DNA from: Thalassospira profundimaris
GTDB taxonomy: Bacteria; Pseudomonadota; Alphaproteobacteria; Rhodospirillales; Thalassospiraceae
Direction of reading: 5' to 3'
Length of the DNA stretch: 64,000 nt
NCBI RefSeq assembly: GCF_003326795.1
Contig: NZ_JPWI01000006.1
Location: 1-64,000 of the forward strand
Under the pieces are notes generated by a model. It did not search any database. It was not told where the DNA came from and saw only the letters and a program-made list of their open reading frames with translations. Numbering within the stretch: position 1 is the first letter of the stretch; every line of letters starts with the position of its first letter. Of the stretch, positions 42 through 24,076 are shown in pieces. The position numbers and the translations under genes were made by a program.

Positions 42-2366
42 TCAGGTTTTTACTGTCCGAATACGTGACCATGCTGGAATGGCCAATGAGATAATCAGAA
101 TGGCCGTGAGCAGTCCCTGTGCCAGCAGGGTTTCCGTTACCGGGTAGAGACCGAAATACAACTGCAACCAGGGTGCATCCGGGAACCATGAGACCGGGGT
201 GGCGGACATAATCGCGGCGGTTTGCAGGCCCCGGATGCCACTGCCGACGAGCATGATGCAAAGAATTGCCAAAAGAATCCCTGTTGTCCGGAAGAAGGTA
301 GTTATCGGCAATTTCGTTTCCAGCCCCAGTATGGCGAAAGCTGCCACAAGGGACAAAGCTGTGCCAGTAAACAATCCGCCAAGAACCGGTAGTGTCGGCG
401 CATCGATCAGCAATGCTTCATAAAACAAGACTGTCTCGAAGCCTTCGCGAAAGACAATCAGGAAAGCCAGCGAAAGCAGGGTGAACCAGCCAAGAAACTT
501 CTGTTTGTCGCCTTTTCTTGCATCGGAGGTCAGCGCGACTTTGTGTTTAATCTCAGCCATCCAGTCGCCGACATAGGCTTTGCGGAAAATCCAGTGCGTC
601 ACATAGAAAAGCACGGCAGCTGCAACAAGGGCGGTTCCTCCTTCAAGGAGTTCGCGTTGCAAGGTGCTCATGGCAAACAATTTTCCGACGGCAAACCACA
701 GAAGGAAAGATCCTGCCAGGGCCAGGGTGATGCCGAGCGTGATCGGCCATAACCATCCGTTCGGTCCTTTGGCTTTGACGCCATTTGATTTAAGTGCCCC
801 GATCATGCAGGCAAGAATCAGGACAGCCTCGAGCCCTTCGCGCAACAAAATCGCAAGAGATTGAACGAAAGCACCAAGCGAGGACAATTGTGTGTCGAGG
901 ATGGTCGACGCCTCGGTAGTTTGTCGTTTCATCCGATCGACGGTGATTTTAAGGGGCTCCAGAGGGCCGTGATCAGCGATGAGTTTGCCCAAGCCTGGTT
1001 CCGTGATGCTGCCTTCCCAGAAATCTGATTCCAGTTTCAGGGCAAGAGAAGGCGAACGCGGGACAAGCCGTTGTTCAATATCGGGATCGAAAAAGGCATA
1101 GGCTTCCAGCCGTTTAAGCTCTGCCTCGGCCCAGTCGCCGGCTTGGGCAATCAGCAAAATCTCGTCAAACAGATCGGGAAGCAGCAGCAATGATGCCTTG
1201 TATCCGCCATTGGCCGTGTCACTGCCATAGGTGTCGGCAATGATTTCCTGCCCTTCGGTGGCAAGATTTCGGATTTGCTCAGGGTTTCCCTTGCTGCTGA
1301 TCAGATATTTCATCTCGTCGAGAATAGTACCAAGCCGGTCGAAAGATCGGGGGTGGCGTTGTGAGAGGTCATGACCAAGATCGCCATAGATCATCTGGGC
1401 ACGGTCACGGAAAAGCTGTGCTTCGAAATATTCAAACGGAATGGTGATTTCGCCGTCGCGAACACCTTTTTCATATTCAAGCGGGATCAGGTTCAAAAAG
1501 CGCGCCAGAAGCCGGACCCGTCGTTCGAGTTCATCCTGTGGCAGGCTGGTCGGGGCATAGGTCGCGAACAGATCCTGAAGATGTTGAAGGTTTGTCTCAA
1601 GCTCGTCGTCCCCGGATGCTGTGCGTAACCCGGTCATGATGTTGCTGATTTCAGTGCCCTTTTGCGGGCCAAGCCGTTCGGTAATATTACCTGCAAGAAG
1701 GCGGTGCAAGCCTTGGGCGCGGGCAATGGTTCCAGCCAGTTGGACGGTATAGTTCTGTGCAAGATGGGTTCGCGCATCGGCAAGCTCGCGTCGTAATTCG
1801 CTGGCATAAATGCCAAGTAACTCAGTCTTGATAATATCGCGGGTCTGAAGAGGGGAAAGACGACCGGCAAGTGCTTCGCGCATGGCAATACTGGCGGCAG
1901 TGTCGCGCGATGTGCGGGCATATTCACGGATATTCAGCCATTGTGATGCAGTTTCGACATCACCGGAATTCAGAAGATCAACAGTTCTTGCAAATGCACC
2001 ATGGAGTATTGCCGTGCGGATGTCGGCATGGGCAGATGCCGCTTTGGCCGGGTTCCATGTTGAAACCGCGTTTGCGTAATCAATCAGTGCGTCGGAAACA
2101 GTGCGGGCCTGATCCGGAACAGCGATTTCAAAGGAGGCGGCAAGATGGTCGTTCCAAAGCGACTGAATTCTGGCCAGTTTGCCCGCCGCCTTTTCTTCCA
2201 GAGCATGATCAACAGGCCGATACATCATCCGGATCAGAGAGGCACTTGTGCTCTGTAATTCTTCGGCATCCTGCCAGGCAAGGTTTGGTTGAGCAAAACC
2301 GTTTGATAGCGGGGCTGCGATGATCACGAAGGTCAGTAAAGCCAATCGGAAAATACAGGGGGTCAT
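42..2366 (-). CDS. FTR1-family iron permease with large N-terminal periplasmic domain
   Basis: High-affinity iron permease of the FTR1/EfeU family, predicted in the inner membrane. A signal peptide (about residues 1-25) is followed by about 480 mostly helical, probably periplasmic residues and then a C-terminal permease of about seven membrane segments. The two hallmark iron-binding REGxE motifs are present, REGLE at about 509-513 and REGFE at about 640-644. At 774 residues it is far longer than plain EfeU (about 280), as in the fused alphaproteobacterial forms. There is no CxxCH motif in the extension. It is the last complete gene of the iron operon and starts in an ATGA overlap with the pentaheme cytochrome gene. 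The iron role is well supported; the function of the extension is unknown. Confidence 0.93.
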   Translation of the reverse strand: MTPCIFRLALLTFVIIAAPLSNGFAQPNLAWQDAEELQSTSASLIRMMYRPVDHALEEKAAGKLARIQSLWNDHLAASFEIAVPDQARTVSDALIDYANAVSTWNPAKAASAHADIRTAILHGAFARTVDLLNSGDVETASQWLNIREYARTSRDTAASIAMREALAGRLSPLQTRDIIKTELLGIYASELRRELADARTHLAQNYTVQLAGTIARAQGLHRLLAGNITERLGPQKGTEISNIMTGLRTASGDDELETNLQHLQDLFATYAPTSLPQDELERRVRLLARFLNLIPLEYEKGVRDGEITIPFEYFEAQLFRDRAQMIYGDLGHDLSQRHPRSFDRLGTILDEMKYLISSKGNPEQIRNLATEGQEIIADTYGSDTANGGYKASLLLLPDLFDEILLIAQAGDWAEAELKRLEAYAFFDPDIEQRLVPRSPSLALKLESDFWEGSITEPGLGKLIADHGPLEPLKITVDRMKRQTTEASTILDTQLSSLGAFVQSLAILLREGLEAVLILACMIGALKSNGVKAKGPNGWLWPITLGITLALAGSFLLWFAVGKLFAMSTLQRELLEGGTALVAAAVLFYVTHWIFRKAYVGDWMAEIKHKVALTSDARKGDKQKFLGWFTLLSLAFLIVFREGFETVLFYEALLIDAPTLPVLGGLFTGTALSLVAAFAILGLETKLPITTFFRTTGILLAILCIMLVGSGIRGLQTAAIMSATPVSWFPDAPWLQLYFGLYPVTETLLAQGLLTAILIISLAIPAWSRIRTVKT

Positions 2367-3913
2367 GGCCGTGCCTTTTTATCTGCAGGAAGACTGAACG
2401 TTGCGCTGACAAGTTCGAAGGGAGGGACAATCAGGTCGGTCTTCAATGTGTTGAAGATAAATTCCTGGGTGGCGACCCGGTACCAGAGACGTGCGGTGAT
2501 CTGGTAAGGGCCGGTGTTGTCACCGGAAAGCGCAACGTCATAGGTAACGATGTCTTCGCCTTTTGGGGGGACGCCTTTGCGCAAATGCGTTATCTCTGCG
2601 GTTATGAAAGTCAGATGATCGGGAATGCGATTGCCCGCACTGTCGCGAAAGTCTTCGCGCCAGATAACCGCGTCTGGATCGGTTTGCCCGCGTTCGGTAT
2701 CGAAGCTGCCGGAATGATAGATCACCGAGCCGTCTGCGTCCGAAACCACAATTTCAAGCCACATATATTTCTGATCGATCACACCTGTTGGCAGGTTGTG
2801 ACCAGCACCAAGATTCTGTACGGCGATGTCAAAAACGAGCCGGTTATCGGTAACGTGACTGCCTTTCAGGGCAAGTCCGGCAGCAGCGCGCAACAGGGCT
2901 GATGTTGCCGTTCCCTGTTTTTCAATCAGGCGAGTGTTTTGTTCTTTGGTTAGTCCTGGCAATATCCCGCCGCGTAACCATGTCAGGTTTGATCCAAGAG
3001 AGGTATCAAACATCAGGTAATTTGCCCCGACAAAGTTATGGGCATAGCGTTCAGGTTTGCGAATGTCCCCGTCGCGGATTTGTCGAACATAGGATGCCGG
3101 ATCCGGCGCCATGTGACAGTCCTGACAAGTGATGTCATTTTGGGCGTACCAGCTGTCGCGCCATTCGACAAAGGTGCTTTGGACATGTTGTCTTGTTGTC
3201 GCCTTGGACATCGATTGATCATAGTTTTCGGTATGGCATCCGCCGCAGAAATCAGCGCTGGCAATCAGGGCATTGGTCTTGGCTGCACCAAAGGCACGGG
3301 CATGATCACGCGGTGCGGCAAGGATCATCGGGTTGGAGAGTTGATCGACACCGGTATTCACAGCTAGGGTAAGCGCCCCATTGCCTTCAAGAGGGTCGGC
3401 ATGGGTAGCGGTATGGCACATGACGCAACTGATCCCTTCGGTCTCGGCGTCTGAAGGCATGACAGATTTGAAGCGATTGGTACGTCCTGCCAGAACTTCA
3501 CCCGGTGCATGACATCCTTCGCAAAACCGTGCACGTTCGATCCCGTCACGGTGCAAGTTTTCATTGGCCTCTACAGCGCGTTCGTAAACTGTGTCGCGAC
3601 CGGCTATGGCATGCAGCGACGGGGCCCACTCATCAAATTCCTTTTGATGACAGGTGGCACAGGTTGCGGCGGACTGAATTTTTGACGGATCGACAAGACG
3701 ACCGTTATCGGTTTGCAGTCGCGACGGCCAGAAAGGCCGTTCTGCACCATTTTCATCCGGTCCAAAGGGCAACTGATAGAACGGGATATTGACAAGGTCG
3801 ATGCCCGGTTCCGGCGCGGGAGGGCGTAGAAGATAAAGGGAAACGACAATCAGGATGCCAATGATACAGCCAGATATCAAAAGCGGGAGATTGGCTTTGA
3901 GTTGTCTTTTCAT
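2363..3913 (-). CDS. Membrane-anchored pentaheme cytochrome c
   Basis: A 516-residue c-type cytochrome with one N-terminal membrane anchor (about residues 9-29) and five CxxCH heme sites (CATCH at 85-89, then CEGCH, CVMCH, CGGCH, CQDCH). The C-terminal third, without CxxCH, looks beta-rich. The start at 3913 is chosen because a GGGGGGAGAA ribosome site precedes it, the anchor follows at once, and it makes an ATGA overlap with the cytochrome b gene; a longer frame to 4099 would add a leader with no sense. It lies between a b-type cytochrome and an FTR1 permease. I infer that it passes electrons to or from iron during uptake, as ferric reductase or ferroxidase partner. Its precise family is not recognised. 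Confidence 0.85.
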   Translation of the reverse strand: MKRQLKANLPLLISGCIIGILIVVSLYLLRPPAPEPGIDLVNIPFYQLPFGPDENGAERPFWPSRLQTDNGRLVDPSKIQSAATCATCHQKEFDEWAPSLHAIAGRDTVYERAVEANENLHRDGIERARFCEGCHAPGEVLAGRTNRFKSVMPSDAETEGISCVMCHTATHADPLEGNGALTLAVNTGVDQLSNPMILAAPRDHARAFGAAKTNALIASADFCGGCHTENYDQSMSKATTRQHVQSTFVEWRDSWYAQNDITCQDCHMAPDPASYVRQIRDGDIRKPERYAHNFVGANYLMFDTSLGSNLTWLRGGILPGLTKEQNTRLIEKQGTATSALLRAAAGLALKGSHVTDNRLVFDIAVQNLGAGHNLPTGVIDQKYMWLEIVVSDADGSVIYHSGSFDTERGQTDPDAVIWREDFRDSAGNRIPDHLTFITAEITHLRKGVPPKGEDIVTYDVALSGDNTGPYQITARLWYRVATQEFIFNTLKTDLIVPPFELVSATFSLPADKKARP

Positions 3914-4446
3914 TTCTCCCCCCGGTTTGAATGCGGGGTCGGGTTGCACCAGTGCCGCAACCCCAGATGAATAACCAGACCGATCATGGCAGTGACGGCC
4001 CCCCATAAATGCAGAAAAGTCAGGAGATAGGTTGTTTCGAACTGCCAGAACCAGATTTTCCCGGTCAGGTAGATTGCAGGGGGCACGACCATCAGCCATC
4101 CGGTTGCGATGATCAGAATGTATTTTGCGATCAGCAACCAGCTCAGTCCGGTGAATATTTTGCGCTGACTTGTCGCGAGACCCTGTTTGATATGGCTCGC
4201 GACCCAGACAAGAAACAGGACAGTAAAAATCAGCCCGACAAATAGATGAAACAGCAAAACAGTTTCACCAGCGTTCCAGTTATGTCCGGCGAAGAATTCC
4301 AGATAAAGTCCGGTGCCAAGCAGGAGGGCAAAAAGATATGTCAGAACCTGCATCCGCGAGTTCGCGCGGATCAGGCTCATTACACCTGCACGTGCAGGAA
4401 CGTACTGGACAGTTGAAAGCGGGAAAGTTGTGTTTTTTGTCGTCAT
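3910..4446 (-). CDS. Cytochrome b561-like integral membrane protein
   Basis: A 178-residue protein with four predicted membrane helices (about 33-52, 62-84, 101-121, 142-162). Histidines 67, 85, 146 and 160 lie in or at the ends of helices, as expected for b-heme ligands. It is predicted to oxidise quinol or exchange electrons with the pentaheme cytochrome c encoded next, whose gene it overlaps by ATGA. The gene follows the imelysin gene after a 68-base gap that holds a strong hairpin. Assignment rests on topology, histidine placement and context rather than a signature motif. A NapC/NirT-independent quinol-to-cytochrome c module is an equally fair description. Confidence 0.72.
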   Translation of the reverse strand: MTTKNTTFPLSTVQYVPARAGVMSLIRANSRMQVLTYLFALLLGTGLYLEFFAGHNWNAGETVLLFHLFVGLIFTVLFLVWVASHIKQGLATSQRKIFTGLSWLLIAKYILIIATGWLMVVPPAIYLTGKIWFWQFETTYLLTFLHLWGAVTAMIGLVIHLGLRHWCNPTPHSNRGEK

Positions 4447-4464
4447 GGCTGTTCTTGCTGGTCG

Positions 4465-4499
4465 TCAAGCCGGGCGGACTTCAATGTCCGCCGGCTTGA
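4465..4499 (-). terminator. Intra-operon hairpin after the imelysin gene
   Basis: An inverted repeat with arms of about 14 bp (TCAAGCCGGGCGGAC / GTCCGCCGGCTTGA, one bulged base) and a six-base loop lies between the imelysin stop and the cytochrome b start. There is no clear T-run on the minus strand, so it is more likely a partial terminator or mRNA 3' stabiliser than a full stop. Confidence 0.55.
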
Positions 4500-4514
4500 T
4501 TGATGCGGGACAAA

Positions 4515-5570
4515 TTAGCCGCGGATATTGACTTTGTTCTGGGCTGCGGCCTGCAGGATCATTGCGACAATCCGGTCGGCAATATCCTGGGCCTCGTTGC
4601 CCAGTGCATCGGCTTCTTCAATGCCGAATTTTTCACCGGACTTTTCGCGGGCATAGGTATCCTCAACCAGCGAAAGAAGTTCTTCGAAGCCTGATTTGAT
4701 CCGGCTATCAAGGTCGGGATTATCAGCGGAAACAACTGGCGAGATGGCGTTGAAATACATTTTTTTGCACCCGCCCATGATCCCCTGAACATCGGCAAGG
4801 CGGCTTTGCGCGACAAAGGCACCGACTTCTCCGGTGATGAACTGGGATTCCTTCCACTCACCGAAATAGTCGCCAACTGTTGGTGTCATTGTCACAACCG
4901 AGGTAAAGGCATCGTCACGGTTCGGCTTCCAGACCGACATGTCGCTATGCAATTTTTTGGCCCAGTGCGTCAGGGCCTGTGCCGCACCAAGTCCGAGATT
5001 GGCATCAAAAAGCATTTCTCCCGGTGCTTGTTTGCCATCGTCATTGAGGTCTGCGACCAGCTTGATATGGCTTTCCTCCATGCCCCAGAACAGGGGTTCC
5101 GTGATGCCGTGGAAAAGGTTTCCCGGCCGGGAAAGCACGGTTCCGTCAGGGAGTGTCAGATCGTATTGGGCGATATCCTCGTTTTCGGTTCCGGGATTGC
5201 CAGCATCAAGGATCAGGTCATATTTTGCGGTTTCAGGGATCCCGGCAACGATACCTTCAATGGTTTCATACTGGTTGGATGCTTCTAGCCAGAGTGTTCG
5301 GATATTTTGTATCTGACCGGCCAGAACAGGGCCTTTGGCCTGCCAGGCAGCAGCATAGTTTCCATCATGTGATGCGATGATATCGGCATAGGCAGACACT
5401 GCATTTTCAAGCAAGCCTGCCTGCGAGATCAGTCGTTCATTATGATCAAGTGTAAACTGTTTGACATTCTCAAGGCCCCTGATTTCCGCATCATCAGTTG
5501 CAAAGGCATTGCCCGAGATTGCAAGACACGATGCCAGTGCGGCGGTCAGAAGAACGGGTTTCTTGAACAT
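4515..5570 (-). CDS. Imelysin-family periplasmic iron-uptake protein
   Basis: A 351-residue exported protein with a clear signal peptide ending near residue 24 (...GNAFA). The body matches imelysin/M75-like proteins, the EfeO/ICMP superfamily, in which periplasmic proteins help deliver iron to FTR1-type permeases. The match shows in helical repeats, a central WGMEESH stretch and a late GCKKMYFN stretch. It is the first gene of the operon that continues with cytochrome b, pentaheme cytochrome c and FTR1. The promoter region holds a near-perfect Fur box and an FNR-type box. A GGTAGGAAT ribosome site precedes the ATG. No peptidase activity should be assumed from the family name. Confidence 0.88.
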   Translation of the reverse strand: MFKKPVLLTAALASCLAISGNAFATDDAEIRGLENVKQFTLDHNERLISQAGLLENAVSAYADIIASHDGNYAAAWQAKGPVLAGQIQNIRTLWLEASNQYETIEGIVAGIPETAKYDLILDAGNPGTENEDIAQYDLTLPDGTVLSRPGNLFHGITEPLFWGMEESHIKLVADLNDDGKQAPGEMLFDANLGLGAAQALTHWAKKLHSDMSVWKPNRDDAFTSVVTMTPTVGDYFGEWKESQFITGEVGAFVAQSRLADVQGIMGGCKKMYFNAISPVVSADNPDLDSRIKSGFEELLSLVEDTYAREKSGEKFGIEEADALGNEAQDIADRIVAMILQAAAQNKVNIRG

Positions 5571-5671: not shown

Positions 5672-5686
5672 TGATAACAATTATCA
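5672..5686 (-). promoter_or_regulatory. Fur box of the iron operon
   Basis: TGATAACAATTATCA matches the 7-1-7 Fur consensus TGATAAT-N-ATTATCA at 13 of 14 positions. It lies 102 bases upstream of the imelysin start. It overlaps the likely -10 region if transcription is activated from the FNR-type box at 5706-5719, a good place for iron-dependent repression. An Irr/RirA-type iron site is less likely given this match. Confidence 0.75.
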
Positions 5687-5705: not shown

Positions 5706-5719
5706 TTGATGCTGGTCAA
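5706..5719 (-). promoter_or_regulatory. FNR/NnrR-type box upstream of the iron operon
   Basis: TTGATGCTGGTCAA fits the Crp/Fnr-class palindrome TTGAT-N4-ATCAA with one base changed. Its centre is about 40 bases upstream of a minus-strand -10-like GATAAT (5680-5685), the spacing expected for class II activation of the imelysin operon. Confidence 0.68.
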
Positions 5720-5754: not shown

Positions 5755-5768
5755 TTGACGATGATCAA
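5755..5768 (+). promoter_or_regulatory. FNR/NnrR-type box upstream of the cobT riboswitch
   Basis: TTGACGATGATCAA is identical, base for base, to the box in the nirS-cbiX promoter region (24063-24076). It lies just upstream of the predicted 5' end of the cobalamin riboswitch leader, so it most likely drives the leader and cobT on the plus strand. Confidence 0.68.
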
Positions 5769-15039: not shown

Positions 15040-16644
15040 TTAGTGACTGGTGCCTTCGGAATAGGTGATCTTGTTAAACACGTTATATTTTCCGACCGGC
15101 TTTTTCATCGGGATGCGTTTGAGTTCGTTGAACGTGTCGGCATCGTAAACAATGACAGCCCCGTCATCATCCCAGATCGAAAGCAAGGCGTGTTTGCCGC
15201 TGCGATCAAATTCAACATGTGCGGCAACCTTGCCCGGTTCGGGACGCAATGTCTTGACGATTTCAAGGGTGCGTTTGTCGATGATATGGACGGCGTCCTT
15301 ATCAGGACCAAAAAACACATCGACCCAGGCATAAGGCGTGTTTTCGTGACTGCGGGTAAAGAAGCCGGGACCAAGCGTTTCAATTGTCTTGATCGTTTCC
15401 CAGGTCGTCATGTCGATAACGCTGATTTTTGAATCCTTAAGGTGCGGGGTGGCAAGAACCTGTCGCCCCTGATATTCAAAGGTAATGCCCGATCCAAGAT
15501 GGGGCATGCCTTCAAGGGCAATATTGGCAACCTTGCGCCCGACATTCAGGTTGACCACCTGTCCGTCCCGTCCATTGCGGGCCGCACCGATCAGATAACG
15601 ATATTCCTGATCAAAGAAGAAATCGTCGAGCCCGTCGGCAAGTCTTATGCGTCGAACAGGAAATGGTCCGTGCTGCACATCAAGCGCTTCGACCATGTTT
15701 TCTTCGTAGTTGTGAACAAAGCCCGGATATACCGGCCGGGGAGAATCGGCATAGGAAATCTCCCAGACTTCAGGCAAATCTTTCAATGCAACGATAAAGC
15801 TTTGTCGCGGTGGTGCCGTATATACAGCCGATACGCGCGATGTTTTTCCACGATCGCCAGCAACCGGAATAAGTCGTAATGGTCGAAGGTCGTAAGCATC
15901 AAGCAGGATCAGACTGTGCGGTAGCATATTGCCGGCCATCAGGTAGCGGCCGTCACTGGAAACCGCAACATTTCGGGTGTTCAGACCAACACGAATTTCG
16001 GCAACCATTTGTAGAGAATAAAGGTCATACATCTGCACCCAGCCATCGCGGGAAGCCAGATAGACAAATCTTCCGTCCGGTGAATATTTCGCACCACCAT
16101 GCAAGGCAAAGCGGGTCTGGAACCGGTCAAGCGGGCTGAAGCTGTCGCCGTCAAGTATGGTGACATGGTGATCCCCGGCTTCGACCACGGTGAACAGATT
16201 AAGCGGATCACTATTGAACTTTGGCTTGGCCGGTAATGTTGCCGGATCGACAAAAACTTCATGACTGGCCGCAATGTCGGCCATTTCCCAACCGGGTATC
16301 TTGGCAAGTGGTTGACGCAACCATTCACCTAAAAGGGTAATATCCGTTTGATCCAGAACGGTTTCGAACGCAGGCATCTGTGTTGCCGCGCGGCCCTTTG
16401 AGATAACGCCCTCAAGCGTTTTGCCACGCAGTTTTTCAAGACTCTCGGGCAAAAGTGCCGGTCCCATTCCGCCCAATCGGTCACCGTTATGGCAAACGGC
16501 GCAATGGGTGGCATAAAGTGCTTCGGCATCAGCCTTCTGGGATGGGGAAAAGGTTTCTTGGCCAAATGCAGGCATCGCGGCCACTGTGGTCAGGGCCGTG
16601 ACCATGGCAAGCTTTCGCAGAAAGGTGCCAGACGGGGTTCTCAT
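15040..16644 (-). CDS. nirN: NirN, cytochrome c / d1-domain protein for heme d1 synthesis
   Basis: Periplasmic dihydro-heme d1 dehydrogenase that performs the last step of heme d1 formation. The 534 residues show a signal peptide (to about 28), a cytochrome c domain with CAVCH at 48-52, and an eight-bladed d1-type propeller with NirS-like repeats such as YSPDGRFVYLASRDGWV. It resembles NirS but is a separate subfamily. It is the last gene of the nir operon, starting in an ATGA overlap with nirJ, and converges on norF. Confidence 0.93.
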   Translation of the reverse strand: MRTPSGTFLRKLAMVTALTTVAAMPAFGQETFSPSQKADAEALYATHCAVCHNGDRLGGMGPALLPESLEKLRGKTLEGVISKGRAATQMPAFETVLDQTDITLLGEWLRQPLAKIPGWEMADIAASHEVFVDPATLPAKPKFNSDPLNLFTVVEAGDHHVTILDGDSFSPLDRFQTRFALHGGAKYSPDGRFVYLASRDGWVQMYDLYSLQMVAEIRVGLNTRNVAVSSDGRYLMAGNMLPHSLILLDAYDLRPLRLIPVAGDRGKTSRVSAVYTAPPRQSFIVALKDLPEVWEISYADSPRPVYPGFVHNYEENMVEALDVQHGPFPVRRIRLADGLDDFFFDQEYRYLIGAARNGRDGQVVNLNVGRKVANIALEGMPHLGSGITFEYQGRQVLATPHLKDSKISVIDMTTWETIKTIETLGPGFFTRSHENTPYAWVDVFFGPDKDAVHIIDKRTLEIVKTLRPEPGKVAAHVEFDRSGKHALLSIWDDDGAVIVYDADTFNELKRIPMKKPVGKYNVFNKITYSEGTSH

Positions 16645-24062: not shown

Positions 24063-24076
24063 TTGACGATGATCAA
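24063..24076. promoter_or_regulatory. FNR/NnrR-type box in the nirS-cbiX intergenic region
   Basis: TTGACGATGATCAA is the only good Crp/Fnr-class palindrome in the 200 bases between the two divergent genes. It lies 73 bases from the nirS ATG and 115 from the other ATG. The distance to nirS fits activation near -41 with a leader of about 30 bases. Confidence 0.8.

What the first reader, a model, noticed from the sequence alone, without database searches (positions are those of the whole stretch)
42..5570. FTR1 iron operon with its own b- and c-type cytochromes
Imelysin, a four-helix cytochrome b, an anchored pentaheme cytochrome c and a long FTR1 are coupled by ATGA overlaps. Classical EfeUOB uses a heme peroxidase and yeast Ftr1 a copper oxidase. 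Here a quinol-linked multiheme chain may supply the iron redox step, which would suit low-oxygen growth.
Basis: partly seen in the sequence, partly recalled or inferred. Interest (0 to 1): 0.65.

Follow-up and report, generated by a model that had tools for sequence, protein, structure and literature searches.

The report
Iron importer with its own cytochromes
A bacterial iron-import operon joins an FTR1-type iron channel and an iron-uptake protein to a pair of cytochromes that probably link it to the respiratory chain; the same four genes are found together in distantly related bacteria, which suggests a way to run this kind of iron uptake without oxygen.

Summary
Four minus-strand genes (imelysin, 4-TM cytochrome b, anchored pentahaem cytochrome c, 774-aa FTR1) form an operon; ATGA overlaps join only cytb/cytc and cytc/FTR1, imelysin being 68 bp from cytb. 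Pseudomonas, Shinella and one more genome of Shinella's family keep the window's order; Chloroflexi MAGs have FTR1-imelysin-cytb-cytc; one alphaproteobacterial MAG fuses cytb to cytc. Four cytb histidines and all five c-haem motifs are invariant. The window promoter has a near-perfect Fur box and two Crp/Fnr-type sites; such palindromes precede 5 of 5 proteobacterial operons but 0 of 9 Chloroflexi ones. No DyP/EfeB was found in the genome. Best reading: an EfeUO-like importer whose redox step runs through a quinone-linked cytochrome pair. Electron direction is not shown; I favour quinol to Fe(III). A new variant of a known kind, not seen in the papers searched.

The parts
4515..5570 (-). imelysin-like protein (351 aa, M75 fold family, signal peptide by eye; EF-hand-like loop at residues 174-185)
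   Evidence: PF09375 33.7 bits over cut-off; loop in 14 of 14 aligned relatives
3910..4446 (-). four-helix di-haem cytochrome b candidate (178 aa); invariant H67, H85, H146, H160
   Evidence: alignment of 18; weak b561-type Pfam match
2363..3913 (-). membrane-anchored pentahaem cytochrome c (516 aa); five CxxCH plus invariant H101, H204, H292, H372, H433
   Evidence: Cytochrome_C554 37.9 bits; 18 of 18 sequences keep the motifs; nearest solved structure 5ze8
42..2366 (-). long FTR1 permease (774 aa): signal peptide, about 470-residue helical domain, FTR1 domain with REGLE and REGFE motifs
   Evidence: PF03239 74.1 bits; motifs invariant in 13; helical N-terminal part
5672..5686 (.). Fur-box-like palindrome TGATAACAATTATCA
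   Evidence: one mismatch to the 15-bp consensus, the only site with 3 or fewer mismatches in the window; with the 19-bp consensus it ties with a site at 15594
5706..5719 (.). Crp/Fnr-type site
   Evidence: TTGAY-N4-RTCAA pattern: 6 in window, 0.37 expected
5755..5768 (.). Crp/Fnr-type site, same 14-mer as at 24063

Best explanation
The operon encodes an EfeUO-like iron importer whose redox step is done by a quinone-linked cytochrome pair. Imelysin and the extracytoplasmic domain of FTR1 hold iron at the outer face of the cytoplasmic membrane (inferred). The di-haem cytochrome b exchanges electrons with the quinone pool and passes them to the anchored pentahaem cytochrome c (inferred from ligand pattern, gene overlap and fusion). 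The cytochrome c changes the redox state of iron beside FTR1, most likely reducing Fe(III) with electrons from quinol, and FTR1 moves the iron inward (inferred). Fur-type and Crp/Fnr-type regulators would switch it on when iron and oxygen are low (sites shown, binding not shown). Shown: gene content, conservation as a unit in two phyla, haem motifs, promoter sites, no DyP/EfeB found. Not shown: activity, direction, transport.
For: Four-gene set kept in 14 of 14 loci whose contigs reach far enough; both gene orders, and equal distance patterns of the four proteins over 12 loci, r 0.978-0.996, 0 of 2000 permutations; cytb-cytc 4-bp overlap in the window and 9 of 13 other loci; cytb-cytc fusion in L076; four invariant cytb histidines; five CxxCH and five more invariant histidines in cytc; nearest solved relative a pentahaem c552 described as low-potential (PMC11976967, passages); no DyP peroxidase found in the genome; Fur-like box; Crp/Fnr-type palindromes in 5 of 5 proteobacterial promoters; norB-like gene in 4 of 5 of these genomes.
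Against: No biochemical evidence for any step. The cytochrome b has no Pfam match over cut-off in the window. Chloroflexi promoters lack the Crp/Fnr-type site (0 of 9) and Fur-like sites of the relatives are weak. Eight Anaerolineae loci have imelysin plus long FTR1 without these cytochromes, so the permease can do without them. The CbcL/MtoC family shows that b/c quinone modules can run either way (PMC6295460). More distant relatives of the cytochrome c are mostly not beside an FTR1: 1 of 52 loci examined.
Confidence: 0.5

Rival explanations
1. Same machine, opposite current: the cytochrome c is an oxygen-independent ferroxidase. Fe(II) is oxidised at the permease, electrons run through cytochromes c and b into the quinone pool, and FTR1 takes the Fe(III), as Fet3p-Ftr1p does with oxygen.
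For: REGLE/REGFE motifs kept; Ftr1p takes only Fe(III) made in place by its oxidase (PMC11966278, passage); CbcL/MtoC-type modules occur in Fe(II) oxidisers too (PMC6295460).
Against: Nearest studied relative of the cytochrome c is described as low-potential, which leaves little driving force for oxidising Fe(II) (inference).
Confidence: 0.27
2. The cytochrome pair serves another reaction (for example nitrite, nitric oxide or peroxide removal) and only shares regulation with an FTR1-imelysin importer.
For: Crp/Fnr-type sites and a neighbouring nor/nir-like region; weak match to ammonia-forming nitrite reductases; FTR1-imelysin loci without cytochromes exist.
Against: The 13 Chloroflexi genomes show no NorB match at E 1e-40 yet keep the cytochromes with FTR1; all five haem motifs are CxxCH, whereas nitrite reductases of the NrfA type bear a CxxCK haem (recalled).
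Confidence: 0.15
3. The substrate is not iron but another metal or a metal complex.
For: Substrate is inferred from family names only; an imelysin-type protein, EfeM, was tested with Zn and Cu in vitro (PMC9174327, passages).
Against: Fur-like box; FTR1 and imelysin families are both tied to iron uptake (PMC3143127, passages).
Confidence: 0.08

Closest known systems
EfeUOB (YcdNOB) iron transporter
   Same: FTR1-family permease with an imelysin-domain partner
   Different: No EfeB/DyP peroxidase in the operon or found in the genome; no cupredoxin domain and no GxHxxE motif in the imelysin; EfeU and EfeO NCBIfam cut-offs not reached; permease has a long extra domain; two cytochromes added
Fet3p-Ftr1p of yeast and bacterial FtrABCD/FetMP
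   Same: FTR1 permease with a dedicated redox partner
   Different: Partner here is a b/c cytochrome pair; no copper oxidase, cupredoxin or P19 family match among the four proteins
CbcL/MtrH/MtoC quinone oxidoreductases
   Same: b-type haem membrane part with conserved histidines plus multihaem c part (PMC6295460, passages)
   Different: Two separate genes, 4 helices and 5 c-haems, four conserved histidines; sequence kinship not tested
Pentahaem cytochrome c552 of Thermochromatium tepidum and the ExtKL-type pentahaem family
   Same: Five c-haems, sequence E 4.7e-10, fold E 2e-8 over 176 columns
   Different: Membrane-anchored and tied to an FTR1 operon; ExtKL NCBIfam cut-off not reached, 31.4 against 250 bits
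'Cytochrome c/FTR1 family iron permease' (annotation name)
   Same: A c-type cytochrome and FTR1 linked; name seen in a table of PMC9230427
   Different: By its name a fusion with one protein; here separate genes, no CxxCH in the FTR1, and a cytochrome b as well; no such protein was examined here

Membership tests
FTR1/OFeT iron permease family | FTR1 domain over curated cut-off and RExxE-type motifs | tested here: met
   PF03239 74.1 bits against 25.3; REGLE and REGFE invariant in 13 sequences; TIGR00145 99.2 bits, below its cut-off of 303.8
Imelysin (M75) superfamily | Peptidase_M75 domain over cut-off | tested here: met
   33.7 bits against 23.5; 9 of 14 relatives match at E 0.01
EfeUOB | EfeB (DyP-type haem peroxidase) | tested here: not met
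   none in the operon; 0 of 1 own genome with PF04261, which rings in E. coli
EfeUOB | EfeO with GxHxxE motif and, typically, a cupredoxin domain | tested here: not met
   motif replaced by GNxFHxxxE; no cupredoxin match; EfeO NCBIfam 31 bits against 270
EfeUOB | EfeO-like origin of the FTR1 N-terminal domain (would tie it closer to EfeUO) | tested here: inconclusive
   top Foldseek row E. coli EfeO, E 0.12, prob 0.98; hhalign to imelysin alignment probability 1-2%; VIA-align gives generic helical bundles
FtrABCD/FetMP | P19-type protein and cupredoxin beside the permease | tested here: not met
   no such family among the four proteins
CbcL/MtrH/MtoC | one protein with multihaem c part and mostly six membrane helices | tested here: not met
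   separate genes, four helices; homology to CbcL itself not tested
b561/HydC-type di-haem cytochrome b | family match and conserved histidine pairs | tested here: inconclusive
   four invariant histidines; Pfam PF01292 20.4 bits, under cut-off 30.1; 2 of 18 relatives match at E 0.01, best 3.3e-7
c552/ExtKL-type pentahaem cytochromes | five CxxCH and significant similarity to a solved member | tested here: met
   the model has mean pLDDT 52
Quinone-linked redox activity | quinol oxidation or quinone reduction | not testable with these tools
   needs protein chemistry

The most novel reading that the evidence does not exclude
A mobile four-gene iron importer in which FTR1 transport is coupled to the quinone pool through a b/c cytochrome pair, so that FTR1-type uptake works without oxygen or peroxide, switched on in proteobacterial denitrifiers by iron limitation together with an anaerobic or nitric-oxide regulator.
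Probability: 0.45. Interest if true: 0.78.

Novelty: new variant of a known kind. Interest (0 to 1): 0.62.

Why it matters
The FTR1 systems named in the papers I saw rely on a copper protein or a haem peroxidase, and which way iron is changed in the bacterial ones is still argued. An FTR1 operon with its own conserved electron wire makes the question testable: the wire can be removed, its potential measured and its direction read. It is also a candidate for iron uptake during denitrification, when haem enzymes raise iron demand and oxygen is absent.

Tried and rejected
Rejected: ATGA coupling of all four genes. Rejected: operon as a trait of the genus; no cytochrome c match (E 1e-3) in 28 of 28 other genomes of the genus. 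Rejected as support: more distant relatives of the cytochrome c. Of 52 such or related loci examined (L041-L060; L078-L097; L116-L127; some from the same genome) only L059 has an FTR1 match near it; flanks differ in length and my ORF picker can hide overlapping genes (it hid cytb in L061 and L063), so this is a lower bound. Not claimed: imelysin origin of the FTR1 N-terminal domain.

Led nowhere: structure of the haem region of the cytochrome c (pLDDT mostly under 50); PDB sequence search with the imelysin and cytb profiles (0 matches each) and with FTR1 alone (0); FTR1 N-terminal domain in 299 genomes of the phylum (1, the own genome); insertion site: three norB regions of congeners share only norCB-like genes with the window, not cobT, MCP, Rrf2 or the operon; base composition 52.9% against 53.7% in the window, no sign of recent transfer.

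Post hoc warnings: the Crp/Fnr-type patterns and the EF-hand pattern were written after the sequences had been seen, so their counts are descriptive. Fur and Fnr consensus strings, the NnrR-type label for TTGCG-N4-CGCAA, the CxxCK motif of NrfA, and the names NorB, NorC, nir and cobT for window genes are recalled or my reading (DBI_PRT is; NorB and NorC were not scanned against a family library).

Literature: searches in the held open-access library; listings, plus passages (not whole texts) of PMC3143127, PMC6083913, PMC9174327, PMC6295460, PMC11976967, PMC11966278, PMC9230427. The four-gene set was not seen there. Most subscription papers are not held and no preprints are.
Full report
What is there. 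The window begins at a contig start (G000:C35:1). Four minus-strand genes run from 5570 to 42: imelysin (351 aa), cytochrome b (178 aa), cytochrome c (516 aa), FTR1 (774 aa). ATGA overlaps join cytb to cytc and cytc to FTR1; imelysin ends 68 bp before cytb. Pfam supports imelysin, FTR1 and, for the cytochrome c, Cytochrome_C554 over cut-off; the cytochrome b has only sub-threshold matches. It is the only FTR1 found in the 4.68-Mb genome. Two other imelysins lie on contig C4, one with the usual GxHxxE motif; a protein with two CxxCH lies beside them, perhaps a di-haem peroxidase (not scanned). No DyP-type peroxidase was found.

Is it a real unit? I aligned the window cytochrome c with a 40%-identical relative from the same class and scanned one genome for each of 84,980 species: 37 loci, 17 of them (L061-L077) with a full-length relative at 38-75% identity. 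Neighbourhoods: imelysin in 16 of 17; a four-helix protein in the cytb place in 17 of 17, fused to the cytochrome c in L076; FTR1 in 14 of 17. L068 and L069 begin inside imelysin and L076 just before the fused cytb, so the rest is off the contig. The genome of L069 has a long FTR1 on another contig; none was found in those of L068 and L076. Pseudomonas borbori, Pseudomonas sp. sp1636, Shinella fusca and a further genome from S. fusca's family (L168) keep imelysin-cytb-cytc-FTR1. The 13 Chloroflexi loci are all from uncultured genomes, mostly Anaerolineales; where FTR1 is present (11 of 13) the order is FTR1-imelysin-cytb-cytc. The four proteins show the same distance pattern over the 12 loci present in all four alignments (r 0.978-0.996, 0 of 2000 permutations; within 8 Chloroflexi loci r 0.942-0.991, 0 to 6 of 2000). 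Cytb and cytc overlap by 4 bp in 9 of 13 other loci tabulated.

How common? Sparse. By cytochrome c: own genus 1 of 29; in a class sample of 385, one other full-length relative, G060, the same contig as L076 by its length; family of S. fusca 2 of 121; genus of P. borbori 2 of 249; class of the Chloroflexi carriers 2 of 249 near full length, both already known as L072 and L075. Scattered spread and about 75% cytochrome identity between alpha- and gammaproteobacteria suggest horizontal transfer (inference); base composition does not add to this.

The core without cytochromes. The FTR1 alignment matched 24 of 249 genomes of that class, 15 over nearly the whole length. Of the 13 of these not already known as carriers, fetched, eight have an imelysin beside the long FTR1 and no match to this cytb or cytc (L152-L154, L156, L159-L161, L163; the FTR1 of L154 is placed). 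In five no imelysin was seen; some of these FTR1 genes lie near contig ends. So imelysin plus long FTR1 is the wider module and the cytochrome pair an addition. In L164, L166 and L167 a separate gene weakly matches the FTR1 alignment beside a short FTR1, perhaps the N-terminal domain as a protein of its own (not checked further).

The proteins. Cytochrome b: H67, H85, H146 and H160 are invariant in 18 sequences, pairs 18 and 14 apart, as expected for two haems stacked across the membrane (inference). Cytochrome c: five CxxCH in all 18, plus five further invariant histidines H101, H204, H292, H372, H433, enough for bis-histidine ligation of all five haems (inference). Nearest solved relative: the pentahaem c552 of Thermochromatium tepidum, by sequence (E 4.7e-10) and fold (E 2e-8, 176 columns; the model is poor, mean pLDDT 52). 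PMC11976967 calls it low-potential, of unclear function, and groups its own pentahaem proteins with ExtKL (passages). Proteins joining a 3- to 5-helix part to a related multihaem part occur in other Anaerolineae with other neighbours (L116-L119, L125), so the pair may be a reusable electron-transfer module. In L059 a longer six-CxxCH relative lies directly upstream of a 272-aa FTR1. FTR1: REGLE and REGFE are invariant in 13 sequences; the N-terminal 470 residues are helical bundles of open origin. Imelysin: a divergent branch with GNxFHxxxE in most aligned members in place of GxHxxE, and an EF-hand-like loop in 14 of 14 aligned sequences and 8 of 8 of the cytochrome-free loci. A lipobox-like cysteine is visible in 9 of 12 printed Chloroflexi sequences, which would hold the protein at the membrane.

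Regulation. A Fur-like 15-mer at 5672-5686 has one mismatch and is the only site with 3 or fewer in 64 kb; with a 19-bp consensus it ties with 15594. TTGAY-N4-RTCAA sites lie at 5706 and 5755; the window holds 6 such sites, 0.37 expected; the 5755 site is the same 14-mer as 24063 in the denitrification region, and 9208 precedes the NorC-like gene. A TTG-N8-CAA palindrome with at most one mismatch precedes 5 of 5 proteobacterial operons: Fnr type in window, L061 and L062, TTGCGCTGGCGCAA in L063 and L168 (shuffle frequency 0.015-0.025 per promoter, background 0.04-0.10 per 300 bp of the same DNA; two related pairs). Against: 0 of 9 Chloroflexi promoters have it; Fur-like sites in the relatives have 2 to 4 mismatches or none; in the window the sites also face a cobalamin riboswitch and cobT-like gene. 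A norB-like gene is in 4 of the 5 proteobacterial four-gene carriers, in 10 of 28 operon-free congeners, in 0 of 13 Chloroflexi carriers and not in the fusion MAG.

Mechanism. I favour outward flow (quinol, cytochrome b, cytochrome c, Fe(III)) because the nearest studied cytochrome is low-potential and CbcL-type b/c modules serve Fe(III) reduction. But that family occurs in Fe(II) oxidisers too, without a telling sequence feature (PMC6295460), and Ftr1p needs Fe(II) oxidation (PMC11966278). The direction is open.

Known or new. It works like EfeUOB or Fet3p-Ftr1p, permease plus redox partner, but fails the EfeUOB test on EfeB and the EfeO motif. Cytochrome links to FTR1 are hinted at in print: a cytochrome gene in some P19-FTR1 loci (PMC6083913) and the annotation 'cytochrome c/FTR1 family iron permease' (PMC9230427). 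The four-gene set itself was not seen in searches.

Noticed in passing
window:5016-5051 (-): EF-hand-like calcium-binding loop (DLNDDGKQAPGE) inside the imelysin, kept in 14 of 14 aligned relatives and 8 of 8 imelysins of cytochrome-free FTR1 loci, absent from the genome's two ordinary imelysins.
   Followed up: partly
L059:5899-10126 (-): A 1135-aa protein with six CxxCH, its C-terminal half related to the window cytochrome c, directly upstream of a 272-aa FTR1 in another family of the order.
   Followed up: partly
window:9208, 24063, 24116, 37653: Further Crp/Fnr-type sites, three of them in the nor/nir-like region; 6 in the window against 0.37 expected.
   Followed up: partly
window:5893-7188 (+): Cobalamin riboswitch (74.5 bits) before a cobT-like phosphoribosyltransferase gene, divergent from the iron operon and facing the same regulatory sites.
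   Followed up: no
L116-L119, L125: Anaerolineae genes joining a 3- to 5-helix part to a 4- or 5-CxxCH cytochrome related to the window one, beside very long ORFs.
   Followed up: no
L045-L047, L048-L057, L060: A different recurring cluster in the class: a 5-CxxCH protein with 4- or 10-CxxCH neighbours and, in several, a protein starting RPQRWD; not identified.
   Followed up: no
L164, L166, L167: Short FTR1 beside a hydantoinase/oxoprolinase-like gene and a gene weakly matching the long FTR1 alignment.
   Followed up: no
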